This document shows positions 35,703 to 41,390 of a DNA stretch of 64,000 nucleotides, piece after piece (the first letter of the stretch is position 1; each line of letters opens with the position of its first letter). The notes under the pieces are model-generated. The model did no database searches, had not been told where the DNA came from, and saw nothing but the letters and a program-made list of their open reading frames with translations. Source of the stretch: Pilasporangium apinafurcum (Eukaryota; Oomycota; Peronosporomycetes; Pythiales; Pythiaceae); NCBI GenBank assembly GCA_001600495.1, contig BCKE01000001.1, positions 502,174 to 566,173 on the forward strand, written 5' to 3'. The translations under genes and the position numbers were made by a program.

Positions 35703-36164
35703 GCGTATGCATATGCTTTTGTATGAACTTTTTCGCTGCGTGTTGAAATGCGTCTCGGGACAAACATCTCGATGCATCACTACAAAATTTGCATACTTCA
35801 AAACTACGTGGTAACAACTGTGAATAATTGCTTTCCATTCCATTAGCCATCTTGATGCGGAATTGCTGTTTCATTTCTGATGGTCCATAAATAAGCGATA
35901 CAGAACCCATATTTGTTTAGAAATGCCTTTACTAAAAAATGTGTAATAGACTAAATATAGTAAGAAATACATGACTATTTGACGTAACAAGCACCATCCC
36001 TTTCATCTTCTTTTCGCAAGCTGTCCGTCCATGCGGAAAACGTATGAGATCCCATTTTGTCCATCTGGCCAAACCTATCATACTGACTAGAAAACCTGAC
36101 AAACGAATTACCTCGAAATCTTATTTTCAGTATACCCAACTGCAGGTGTGTCTTTGCAACTAGT

Positions 36165-36395
36165 ATGAGAATTTTTTTACTGGTATGTCATTCGGCAATT
36201 CACCACCAAATGGTCAACGGCGTTCCCGATGGCACAATTGAATCTCGATCCGTTTTGCACTGTGAATCCAGTGAATGCAAGACGTTTTGGGATCGCGACG
36301 TGAGCGCTTCGCTGAATATTATGCGCATGACGACAGAACTTTTCAACAATCAAGCAAGACCAGAGTACTTGCAACGAGAATCAAGTGAGTCGTAG
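36165..36395 (+). pseudogene. Fanzor C-terminal zinc-ribbon fragment (copy 1)
   Basis: The frame holds CHSAIHH, then HCESSEC and FWDRDVSASLNIM, i.e. the second Cys pair and the catalytic Asp block of Fanzor1-type nucleases. Only one Cys of the first zinc-binding pair remains. It lacks RuvC-I and RuvC-II and cannot be an active nuclease. Confidence 0.7.
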
Positions 36396-36486
36396 AAGCG
36401 CAAAAAAAGCGTGAGCTCGGGGTCTTCGGACTTGAACCTGCTCACACGGTATAGCCCGTATTCTAGATGTAGCCACTTGGTAGGCG

Positions 36487-36505
36487 CAACTCGCTTCGCG
36501 AGTTG
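36487..36505. repeat. Perfect 8-bp hairpin at end of Fanzor-derived element (copy 1)
   Basis: CAACTCGC, loop TTC, GCGAGTTG. TAGG six bases to the left and CCTA six bases to the right can extend the fold. It is identical in copy 2, so conserved after duplication. It lies where Fanzor/TnpB guide RNA scaffolds are encoded, just beyond the nuclease 3' end. Confidence 0.7.
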
Positions 36506-36517
36506 GAGTAACCTAGT

Positions 36518-37035
36518 GAACAGCATGACCAAGTCTCCTGTCCTGTGAAAAAATCCGCTACGCATTATATATCTCACGTTTCATCAACACTTATGATATT
36601 ACCAAACCTCTATCAGTTTATAACACTCTGCGTGATGTGTGTAAGCTGGCGTAGCTTCATGGGTCGTTGATGATCTTGTCAAAAAAGACCAGAATAATGG
36701 AAGAAAAGAAGAAAAAATAGAGCTCTCTTGTAGTTTCACACGGAAACCAACATAGCCAGTTCTGATTGGACCGTTTTCTCGTTTAATCAGATTATATCTA
36801 TTCTGATCCAGATAAATTACGATATATGTATTAAACTTATGTTTTAAACATTATGGGCTAATAACCACACTTGTCCCGCATTTAGTTTCGATGTCAGTCC
36901 CACACAATCGACTGGCATTCCGGGAAGAGTGATGGTCAGAGTGTAACATTCCTTCGAGAATGTGCGACTGTAGTTCCGGTTGTTGTTAAAGGGCATTTCT
37001 GAATTTCCAAGGAAGCGAACAAGAAGAAACATATT
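36518..37035. other. Intergenic region between element copy 1 and the DeSI gene
   Basis: 518 bp that must hold the promoter of the downstream gene. A minus-strand frame ending at 36844 looks mildly protein-like but has no support. Otherwise AT-rich with no recognisable feature. Confidence 0.4.
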
Positions 37036-38626
37036 ATGACGAGCGTTACGCTGCGTGTGTACGACCTCAGTCGCGGAATGGCGCGACAACTGTCGATGCC
37101 GCTATTGGGGAAGCAGATTGATGGTATTTGGCACACGGGTGTGCTGGTCTTCGGAAAGTAAGTGTCAAAACAGATAAGCACATCTTAGATGAAGACTGAC
37201 CAACTGACTGACTTGTGTAAATCATTATAGGGAGTATTTCTTTGGCGGTGGCATCCAAGTGATGGAACCAGAGATGGTTGTGATGCGGTACGCCATGGAA
37301 CCGGTCCAGACAGTTCATTTAGGTGTGACCAACAAGTCCCAGGCACAATTTGAAACGTTCCTTCGCAGCATCAGTCCACGATTTACTGCAGCAACATACG
37401 ATCTGTTGCGTCATAATTGCAACAATTTTTCTAACGAGCTGGCGATGTTTCTTCTTGGAAATGGGATTCCACAGCACATTCTGGATTTGCCGAATGAAGC
37501 GCTATCTACGCCATTAGGGTACGTTCTGTGTGGATATAATCGCTTTGTAGTTTCATGAAGAAATGACCTCTGTATGATGTTGTGTATGTATAGCGCGATG
37601 CTCCGTCCAGCCATTGAGAATTTACAGCGCGAAATGCATGCAACAGGAAACCAACCGTTTGCGATTCCGTTCAACGATCCGGCACTGGCCATTTCTTCAG
37701 CTTCTGCCGCAGCTACTGAAAACCCCACTACTGCTTCACTGGCAGCAGTAGGTACTTCGTCAGTGGATGTATCATCTCGTCGATTTAAGAAGTCAGGAAA
37801 TCCGGCATTGCACCTGGAAAAATTCGTTCGTCGTATCCATGCTCTTAATACGTCAAGCACTCGCAAGTTACTATCGGAGCAGGAAATAGACGCACTGAAC
37901 GAGTTTGCAACGCAGATTACAGCACATCAAAGCAACATGGAAGCAGTTTGCACGGAAGACGGTACGGCGCGCACCCTTCTGTGGTGGCAGATTCTTCATA
38001 AACTTTTAGCAGAAGGACCGGCATCACAATTCTTCTTCCCGGGGCTTGGCATCTTCCGTGTGCTATTATTGTTGCCTACTCATGGATCGGAAAGTATCGT
38101 CACGCTAAAGAACTCCTGTTTTGATGCTCTCCTCCGTGCTACAGACACAGAAAAGTCCTCGGGACTTTCAACTTCACAAGTGATCATACTGCTGTCTGTG
38201 CTTGTGAATGCTTTTGCGAACCAAGTTGCAAGTGAACTCGTACTGGCACGATCTGCCAATTTCCTTTCGTTCGCGTTCTCATCAATTGCGGAGTCGACCC
38301 ATGCAGATGTGCGGCTCTTGAGCGCCACCGTGATTAGCAATTTTTGTTTGGCATTGAAAATCGAGGAAGAAATTGTGATTACGACCATTATCTGCGGTGC
38401 TGTGGAGACTCTGGATCGTATTTCTCGTGAACAACAGCATTCAGCGACGTTGCAAACAACAATTGAAGGTGTAGTTGGAGGTATTGGACGATTACTTCGT
38501 GATTTCGAAGCTGCGCGTAATCTGTCGCTAGAATTAGGACTTGCCGAAGTACTGCAGCGACTACATGGAGCTCCAGCAATGAGCAGTATCCATCCACTTA
38601 TATCGGAAGTGGTTGCACTGATATGA
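37036..38626 (+). CDS. PPPDE/DeSI-type isopeptidase fused to a PUL/ARM-like domain
   Basis: Three exons. The start ATG 37036 gives MTSVTLRVYDLSRGMAR. The PPPDE (DeSI, deSUMOylating or deubiquitinating isopeptidase) domain covers about residues 1-150: the catalytic His is in IWHTGVLVFGKEYFFGGG and the catalytic Cys in LRHNCNNFSNELAMFL, then IPQHILDLP. The third exon (from about 37594) adds a linker and a helical C-terminal region of about 250 residues (LNEFATQITAHQSN, LWWQILHKLLAEGP, VLVNAFANQ, ATVISNFCLAL) that resembles the PUL domain of PLAP/Ufd3, which binds Cdc48/p97. Plant relatives often have PPPDE-thioredoxin-PUL; no CxxC thioredoxin motif is present here. The role is likely ubiquitin- or SUMO-related protein turnover with p97, by inference. 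Confidence 0.82.
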
Positions 38627-40407: not shown

Positions 40408-40791
40408 ATTTGGTCAGAATATTATTAACGGTTCAAAAAACGATAGAGACCTCTGGATCATCAAGTTAAGTTGGTAGAAGGAATGCTTAGCAATAAGAAT
40501 ACATAGCTGTTTACAAGTGGATAATCAGTAGGTAGTTACAACCAGAAACACGATCACTTTCCAATTGCCTACCTACCTTACAATCTTCACACGTCAATAT
40601 CGTCATAACTATTTGCCGCCCTGGAAAAAAGGAAATAGCGGAAGAATCCTCAGAATCTATTCTTTTATACCAAGTGGAGTGCTCGTTGCTAAATCCAGTA
40701 GAAACTAACTTACACTGTAAAAGAGATGTACTTCCGGTAGTACACTTGGGGAAAAAAGGTTAAATAGAGATGAGCCTTGGTTCAGATTAGC
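40408..40791. other. Gap between Fanzor pseudogene and element copy 2
   Basis: 384 bp, AT-rich. It may contain the decayed 5' part of the Fanzor gene, because the coding similarity stops abruptly at a nonsense codon just above 40407. No intact feature seen. Confidence 0.4.
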
Positions 40792-40960
40792 ATCCCTTTC
40801 ATCTTCTTTTCGCAAGCTGTCCGTCCATGCGGAAAACGTATGAGATTCCATTTTGTCCATCTGGCCAAACCTATCATACTGACTAGAAAACCTGACAAAC
40901 GAATTACCTCGAAATCTTATTTTCAGTATACCCAACTGCAGGTGTGTCTTTGCAACTAGT

Positions 40961-41191
40961 ATGAGAATTTTTTTATTGGTATGTCATTCGGCAATTCACC
41001 ACCAAATGGTCAACGGCGTTCCCGATGGCACAATTGAATCTCGATCCGTTTTGCACTGTGAATCCAGTGAATGCAAGACGTTTTGGGATCGCGACGTGAG
41101 CGCTTCGCTGAATATTATGCGCATGACGACAGAACTTTTCAACAATCAAGCAAGACCAGAGTACTTGCAACGAGAATCAAGTAAGTCGTAG
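40961..41191 (+). pseudogene. Fanzor C-terminal zinc-ribbon fragment (copy 2)
   Basis: Same protein fragment as copy 1 with a conservative change near the C-terminus (SKS instead of SES). It keeps HCESSEC and FWDRDVSASLN. No other nuclease domains are present. Confidence 0.7.
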
Positions 41192-41282
41192 AAGCGCAAA
41201 AAAAGCGTGAGCTCGGGGTCTTCGGACTTGAACCTGCTCACACGATACAGACCGTATTCTATGTGTAGCCACTTGGTAGGCG

Positions 41283-41301
41283 CAACTCGCTTCGCGAGTT
41301 G
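41283..41301. repeat. Perfect 8-bp hairpin at end of Fanzor-derived element (copy 2)
   Basis: Identical stem-loop to 36487-36505 (CAACTCGC, TTC, GCGAGTTG). Bases upstream of it differ between the copies (GATACAGACC versus GTATAGCCC) while the hairpin does not. Confidence 0.7.
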
Positions 41302-41390
41302 GAGTAACCTAGTTTGTTATATGATCTGGAAGAGTAAAGTATTAGTGGTCAAGAGTGATTGTCACATGGTTTCCTTTCAAGGAAAAAAGA

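What the first reader, a model, noticed from the sequence alone, without database searches (positions are those of the whole stretch)
35996..41313. Two near-identical 522-bp direct repeats that keep only the zinc-ribbon end and a hairpin of a Fanzor element
Copies at 35996-36517 and 40792-41313 have identical length and orientation, about eight mismatches, sharp edges, and the same C-terminal fragment plus hairpin CAACTCGC-TTC-GCGAGTTG. There are no terminal inverted repeats. They look like a MITE-like family that retains the part of the element encoding the putative guide-RNA scaffold. If the scaffold is still transcribed, such elements could be mobilised, or could serve as orphan guide RNAs, with a nuclease supplied in trans.
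Basis: partly seen in the sequence, partly recalled or inferred. Interest (0 to 1): 0.8.

Follow-up and report, generated by a model that had tools for sequence, protein, structure and literature searches.

The report
Gutted copies of a Fanzor transposon
The two repeats belong to a family of short, gene-less copies of a mobile element that once carried an RNA-guided DNA cutter (Fanzor); they keep the element's two ends and the stretch that may make its guide RNA.

Summary
Two 520-bp copies (35997-36516, 40793-41312) differ at 8 positions, share no flanks, and lie in an oomycete genome with at least 71 two-ended copies (44 of ~640 bp, 16 of ~520 bp, 9 of ~2.58 kb, 2 of ~400 bp). The 2.58-kb copies are the parent: a Fanzor1 gene (no intact one found) between the same ends. 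The short forms are internal deletions: the 520-bp form lacks parent nt 214-2272, the 640-bp form nt 218-2153 (between 13-bp direct repeats). Both keep ~215 bp of the left end, at least 61 last Fanzor codons and 121 nt of 3' noncoding sequence. The codons show no purifying selection and are out of frame in nearly all copies of the commoner form, so the retained module is DNA ends plus possible guide RNA, not protein. Insertions lie mostly at CA|T, without inverted repeats or target duplication; the right end is a hairpin, 11 nt, CTAG, like a canonical Helitron, yet no Helitron Rep/helicase, Y1 transposase or same-ended autonomous element was found. Closest precedent: the 'ghost Spu-1' elements of Spizellomyces (Saito 2023), whose orphan guide RNAs work in trans. 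New variant of that kind; transcription and guide activity are untested.

The parts
35995..35996 (.). CA dinucleotide at the left insertion boundary of copy 1 (target-derived, inferred)
   Evidence: CAT stands at one of three fixed spacings before the left core in 20 of 20 copies with an unbroken core; also in one unoccupied, diverged paralogous site
35997..36516 (+). Copy 1: 520-bp internally deleted Fanzor1 element (class A)
35997..36209 (+). Retained left end and 5' noncoding part of the parent element; deletion junction at about 36209/36210 (microhomology makes it ambiguous by a few bases)
   Evidence: class A lacks parent nt 214-2272; junction sequences
36210..36395 (+). 61-codon remnant of the Fanzor C-terminus with stop (part of the zinc ribbon plus the RD motif)
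   Evidence: no purifying selection
36396..36516 (+). 121-nt 3' noncoding right end: candidate guide-RNA (omegaRNA) scaffold, inferred
36487..36505 (+). Right-end hairpin CAACTCGC-TTC-GCGAGTTG, followed by 11 nt ending CTAG
36513..36517 (+). Element end CTAG followed by host T
   Evidence: T follows in 48 of 51 copies read, C in 3
40791..40792 (.). CA dinucleotide at the left boundary of copy 2
40793..41312 (+). Copy 2: 520-bp internally deleted Fanzor1 element (class A)
41006..41191 (+). 61-codon Fanzor C-terminal remnant with stop in copy 2
41192..41312 (+). 3' noncoding right end of copy 2, with hairpin at 41283-41301 and CTAG at 41309-41312
63926..63929 (+). CCAT in a diverged paralogous copy of the target of element L060, unoccupied here
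   Evidence: aligned by eye

Best explanation
The repeats are non-autonomous, internally deleted derivatives of a 2.58-kb transposon whose only recognised gene was a Fanzor1 RNA-guided nuclease. Shown: parent and derivatives share both ends; two different deletion forms reached high copy number; insertions lie mostly at CA|T with no duplication and no inverted repeats; the protein fragment is not under purifying selection. Inferred: what was selected for spread is the pair of DNA ends, recognised in trans by a transposase not encoded in any copy seen, probably of a Helitron-like (rolling-circle, HUH) kind given the hairpin + 11 nt + CTAG|T right end (this part about 0.4); and the right end may also make an orphan guide RNA whose guide is the adjoining host sequence and whose recognition motif is CA(T), as in the 'ghost' Fanzor loci of Spizellomyces (about 0.2).
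For: Of 83 left-end pattern hits, 71 pair with 71 of 76 right ends in four discrete length classes: 44, 16, 9 and 2 copies. Six full-length copies read carry Fanzor frames between the same ends. Deletion limits and junction repeats. Fanzor1 assignment: the only two PDB hits are Parasitella and Spizellomyces Fanzor1 (E 3e-5 and 1e-4); named homologues are oomycete proteins; PF07282 just over its cut-off. Distinct nonsynonymous:synonymous changes 31:7 in class A and 47:10 in class B, neutral expectation 2.6:1. Junctions. The sister family's 3' noncoding part is collinear with this one (4 of 1000 dinucleotide shuffles as good) and recurs in short matches that end at the same base.
Against: No Helitron partner: PF14214 gave nothing (it rang in no control either) and only one PIF1-like helicase locus was found. 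No Y1 transposase. RNA folding is no better than shuffles, RNAalifold's covariation term is small, with double changes at 2 of 49 pairs, and with stricter scoring the sister-family likeness is not significant (63 of 1000). Some copies lack CA at the left (L034, L043, L052, L059, L062, L065). No transcript data.
Confidence: 0.8

Rival explanations
1. Helitron hitchhikers proper: the ends were captured from, or evolved to mimic, a canonical Helitron whose Rep-helicase moved them and has since been lost from this genome.
For: CTAG end fits CTRR; hairpin 11 nt inside the end; 5'-TC in 18 of 20 copies with an unbroken left core; mostly A|T site; no TSD, no TIR. Fanzor1 in non-autonomous Helitrons is published for Chlamydomonas, Helitron2 type (PMC3627910 section 8).
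Against: No Helitron_like_N match and one PIF1 locus only; many copies outside that subset begin with TT, and the script's count over 48 copies is 31 with TC; the sister Fanzor family at 47% identity does not end in CTAG.
Confidence: 0.4
2. They are mobilised in trans by the serine recombinase of the IS607-like TnpB/Fanzor elements in the same genome.
For: Three weak resolvase hits: two inside fetched loci L010 and L011, which hold TnpB-like genes, the third about 1.2 kb from another PF07282 hit; TnpB-only relatives of IS607 too lack TIRs and TSDs (PMC3627910, passage).
Against: The Fanzor here is type 1 by PDB likeness, and Fanzor2 is the type reported in IS607-like elements (PMC3627910 abstract). 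The ends of the two families were not compared.
Confidence: 0.1
3. The copies are maintained as orphan guide-RNA genes rather than as passive passengers.
For: Every deletion form read keeps the C-terminal and 3' noncoding right end; ghost Spu-1 guide RNAs work with SpuFz1 in human cells (PMC10432273).
Against: Keeping both ends is needed for transposition anyway; diversity in the 3' noncoding part is not lower than in the unselected codons (pi 0.034, 0.063, 0.062 for positions 401-520 against 0.030-0.043 for 241-400); no intact nuclease of this family found.
Confidence: 0.2
4. A local segmental duplication, unrelated to transposition.
For: The two window copies are 4.8 kb apart, same orientation, and close in the tree.
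Against: Flanks unrelated and some 70 dispersed copies, those read with their own flanks.
Confidence: 0.01

Closest known systems
Ghost Spu-1 elements of Spizellomyces punctatus (Saito et al. 2023, PMC10432273)
   Same: Short copies with both ends of a Fanzor1 transposon but no Fanzor gene, more numerous than the gene-bearing copies (134 against 42 loci there), about 550 nt, CA before the left end, no transposase found within the ends, right end carries the guide-RNA scaffold (shown there, presumed here).
   Different: Here no 30-nt inverted repeats; right end is hairpin + CTAG|T; short and long copies intermix on a tree of their shared parts and the deletion junctions can be read; a C-terminal coding remnant is kept; RNA expression unknown.
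[quoted passage not shown]
   Same: Fanzor1 as gene in an element with Helitron-like ends, internal deletions, intact 3' ends.
   Different: Those are Helitron2 (hairpins and asymmetric repeats at both ends, insertion after TTTT, many with TSDs); here the 3' end is Helitron1-like and the site is CA|T.
TnpB-only bacterial elements (IS1341 type)
   Same: RNA-guided nuclease as only gene, no TIR, no TSD, possibly deletion derivatives that need a transposase in trans (as described in PMC3627910, passage).
   Different: Bacterial; here gene-less forms dominate.

Membership tests
Fanzor1 | TnpB-like C-terminus (zinc ribbon, RD) closer to Fanzor1 than to Fanzor2/TnpB | tested here: met
   PF07282 26.4 bits against a cut-off of 26.3; the only two PDB hits are Fanzor1 proteins; no tree was built
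Ghost Fanzor element | Both ends of a Fanzor element without the Fanzor ORF | tested here: met
Ghost Fanzor element | CA before the left end | tested here: met
   20 of 20 copies with unbroken core; 13 of 16 with the second form of the core; 15 of 51 had neither core form. L034, L043 and L062 lack CA
Ghost Fanzor element | 30-nt inverted repeats at both ends | tested here: not met
Ghost Fanzor element | Expressed guide RNA extending past the right end | not testable with these tools
   no RNA data
Helitron (canonical) | CTRR-3' end | tested here: met
   CTAG in 49 of 51 copies, CTAA in one, CCAG in one
Helitron (canonical) | 5'-TC end | tested here: inconclusive
   TC in 18 of 20 copies with an unbroken core; 31 of 48 by the script's boundary
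Helitron (canonical) | 3' subterminal hairpin, insertion between A and T, no TSD | tested here: met
   no clean empty site, one diverged unoccupied paralogue
Helitron (canonical) | Autonomous partner with Rep-helicase and the same ends | tested here: not met
   (no control rang); longest element with both ends 2572 nt between the pattern matches
MITE (classical) | Terminal inverted repeats and TSD | tested here: not met
IS200/IS605-type | Y1 transposase partner | tested here: not met
   PF01797: none, while 5 of 14 controls rang
IS607-type | Serine recombinase partner in the same element | tested here: not met
   three resolvase hits in the assembly, none within this family's elements

The most novel reading that the evidence does not exclude
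The gene-less copies are a genomic library of orphan guide RNAs: each right flank is a guide, CA(T) is the recognition motif, and an intact sister Fanzor cuts empty alleles or look-alike sites, so that the short copies spread by RNA-guided gene conversion on top of, or even instead of, a transposase. This would explain the mixing of deletion forms on different sequence backgrounds and two pairs of separate insertions whose right flanks are more alike than expected.
Probability: 0.1. Interest if true: 0.9.

Novelty: new variant of a known kind. Interest (0 to 1): 0.5.

Why it matters
It shows, in a lineage other than those of the 2023 ghost-locus paper, that gene-less Fanzor elements can outnumber gene-bearing ones, and here their origin can be read from deletion junctions. 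The common retained module (two ends plus candidate guide RNA, protein not needed) makes the open question of whether Fanzors act in trans for other elements directly testable, and it links a Fanzor1 element to canonical Helitron-like ends.

Tried and rejected
Segmental duplication: rejected. Mini-protein function of the 61-aa remnant: rejected; 11 of 17 class A copies keep the full 61 codons, but in class B the start codon leads out of frame (22 of 23; L043 is back in frame through a further deletion) and N:S is not below neutral. Resident Helitron, Y1 and same-element serine recombinase: not found. Larger autonomous element with the same ends: none up to 20 kb between pattern-matched ends. 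Empty sites: 14 of the 51 flank pairs were joined and searched, 40 of 117 candidates being scored; none gave a hit with both flanks across a junction; one right flank (L039) lies 10 bp from a dispersed repeat, one copy of which matches on to the CA only. Rfam: no match at E 1 or better in 35900-41400. RNA folding against shuffles: no support. The count of CA (43 of 48) is biased because the script chose the nearest CA; the fixed-spacing count replaces it. In the TSD scan, two-base matches in 21 of 48 copies occur at a register inside the element on both sides, i.e. between its own letters. Papers: 7 searches; 'Fanzor' with 'miniature inverted-repeat' gave 0 papers, with 'ghost' only PMC10432273.
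Full report
OBSERVATION. The two copies are real: 35997-36516 and 40793-41312, 520 bp each, exactly 8 mismatches, no similarity in the 200 bp on either side (42/200 and 52/200 identical). A DNA search of the assembly (36.5 Mb, 136 contigs; the window is C1:502174-566173) returned 57 matching stretches with only 40 of 90 candidates scored. The 29-nt right-end pattern occurs 76 times with up to 3 mismatches and 0 times reversed; a 19-nt left-end pattern 83 times against 8 reversed. 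Of the 83 left hits, 71 pair with a right end on the same strand within 20 kb, in four length classes (distances between the patterns): 44 at 577-647, 16 at 469-512, 9 at 2528-2572 and 2 at 387. Twelve left hits stay unpaired: 7 have 3 mismatches and may be chance; one is the class A copy L033, whose right hairpin has a deletion that the pattern misses; two more (C11:622503, C55:106503) lie just before Fanzor C-terminal matches and are probably copies too. Five right ends stay unpaired.

ORGANISM. A host gene of the window (33933-35702, peptidase C69) is closest to oomycetes of the Peronosporales/Pythiales side: Lagenidium 73% over 85% of its length, Pythium oligandrum 67%, Phytophthora boehmeriae 65%, besides unnamed records up to 76%.

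PARENT AND DERIVATIVES. I read 51 copies with flanks. Of them 17 are ~520 bp (class A, with both window copies), 23 ~640 bp (class B), 6 ~2.58 kb (class C), 2 ~400 bp (D), and 3 (L041, L047, L058) lack a recognisable left end. The 2.58-kb copies hold Fanzor frames between the same ends. All six read are interrupted by stops or frameshifts; introns were not modelled. Protein search found nine long copies (89 of 686 candidates scored); one of them has an uninterrupted 476-codon C-terminal part (L051), whose upstream part is broken, and the others have stops within that part. The nearest uninterrupted relative is a 681-aa frame on C59, 47% identical. Relative to L051, class A lacks nt 214-2272 and class B nt 218-2153. 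The class B junction is a 13-bp direct repeat, CGTCAAAGCGCTC; the class A junction has a few bases of microhomology around the start codon.

PROTEIN FRAGMENT. In class A the start codon is replaced by an internal ATG, giving a 61-aa frame, full length in 11 of 17 copies. In class B the start codon opens a 37-aa out-of-frame product in 18 of 23 copies, shorter ones in 4, and is back in frame in 1. Distinct nonsynonymous:synonymous changes in these codons are 31:7 (A), 47:10 (B) and 14:4 (C), against a neutral expectation of 2.6:1 with transitions weighted fourfold: no purifying selection. The fragment is a passenger.

ENDS. Right end: hairpin, GAGTAAC, CTAG, then T in 48 of 51 copies and C in 3. 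Left end: 20 of 51 copies have an unbroken left core, and all 20 have CAT at one of three fixed spacings (10 + 9 + 1); of 16 copies with a second form of the core 13 have CAT; 15 have neither form, and among those L034, L043 and L062 lack CA. No TIR; no TSD of 4 or more bases in more than 1 of 48 copies at any register tested. One diverged paralogue of a target, unoccupied, is in the window at 63926-63929: it reads AGTATCCATGG where L060 reads AGTATCCATCTCCC, and by eye its right flank resumes after about 8 missing bases; L060 is one of the 3 copies followed by C. So CA(T) is most likely target sequence, but a clean empty site is missing. From PMC3627910: canonical Helitrons have 5'-TC, CTRR-3' and one 3' subterminal hairpin; insertion between A and T is recalled.

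MOBILISER. No Helitron N domain (uninformative control), one PIF1 locus, presumably the host's, no Y1 transposase. Three weak resolvase hits, two of them inside loci L010 and L011; the one in L010 is confirmed as Resolvase, and a 504-aa frame in L011 carries the TnpB domains, so IS607-like elements share the genome. None lies in this family. The enzyme that moved this family is therefore unknown; Helitron-like is my best guess from the ends.

GUIDE-RNA SCAFFOLD. By analogy with other Fanzors, the right end would be the omegaRNA and the flank its guide (PMC10432273 section 7). For: the 121-nt 3' noncoding part is kept in every form read; that of the sister family aligns collinearly (score 74; 4 of 1000 dinucleotide shuffles as high; with the stricter scoring tried first 63 of 1000, so weak); 12 of the 31 matches of its 3' region end at query 378-380, and 11 of these begin at 169 or later, i.e. 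cover at most about the last 20 codons and the noncoding part, though their left ends were not read. Against: folding energies are within shuffles, covariation is small in an alignment that is 96% identical, and diversity of the noncoding part is not lower than that of the dead codons.

HISTORY. On a tree of the shared parts (46 copies) the classes intermix: starred branches force at least 3 changes for B, 2 for A and 2 for C (only 4 of 43 inner branches are starred, 23 are open). Identical junctions on different backgrounds mean gene conversion between copies or recurrent deletion. The hairpin loop is TTC (or TTT) in 8 of 46 copies and GAA (or AAA) in 38, i.e. the palindrome has inverted, needing 8 changes on that tree.

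RIGHT FLANKS. Among 1275 pairs of right flanks, one pair (L032/L052, both on contig C32, 165 kb apart) shares the first 10 bases, and one (L024/L040) matches at 12 of 15; 1128 left-flank pairs reach 6 bases and 10 of 15, and control stretches 100 bp further out reach 7 (right) and 5 (left) bases and 11 of 15 on both sides. This was noticed after looking, the second pair barely exceeds the control, and it is only a lead towards RNA-guided site choice.

KNOWN WORK. Ghost Spu-1 loci (134 in Spizellomyces, about 550 nt, CA before the left end, guide RNAs active in human cells with SpuFz1) are the closest precedent (PMC10432273; section 7 and passages read; a figure legend also compares ghost loci of three other species). 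Fanzor1 in non-autonomous Helitron2 elements of Chlamydomonas, and Fanzor1 counts for Phytophthora, Pythium and Albugo, are in PMC3627910 (abstract, sections 8 and 12 and passages read). PMC10711439: passages only. I found no paper on gene-less Fanzor elements in oomycetes in the listings; the library lacks most subscription journals.

VERDICT. Family of internally deleted Fanzor1 elements: about 0.9. Helitron-like mobilisation: about 0.4. Working orphan guides: about 0.2. RNA-guided spread: about 0.1.

Noticed in passing
window 39057-40407, minus strand: Remains of a second, different Fanzor-like gene lie between the two repeats (IIGLDPG motif; C4 zinc finger and RDINTAIDIL with a stop between them; no Pfam match of two of its frames); 363 bp from 39993 on recur at 92% in locus L033.
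   Followed up: partly
L010, L011 (contigs C55, C62); window about 62540-63240: IS607-like elements with a serine recombinase and a TnpB-like gene; related fragments flank several of the repeat copies and occur near the window's right end.
   Followed up: partly
genome G000: Very high Fanzor/TnpB load: 852 first-look candidates for PF07282; 150 were scored and all 150 are above the cut-off.
   Followed up: no
right-end hairpin of 46 aligned copies (among L021-L071): The hairpin's loop occurs in both orientations (GAA/AAA in 38, TTC/TTT in 8), so the palindrome has flipped, apparently repeatedly.
   Followed up: partly
L032/L052 and L024/L040, right flanks: Two pairs of separate insertions have unusually similar right flanks (10 identical bases; 12 of 15), with no such likeness on the left.
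   Followed up: partly
C121, C18, C10, C1, C3, C28, C69, C55, C23, C4, as listed: The sister Fanzor family of C59 also has short matches that end at the same base and cover mainly the 3' noncoding part, perhaps ghosts of their own.
   Followed up: no
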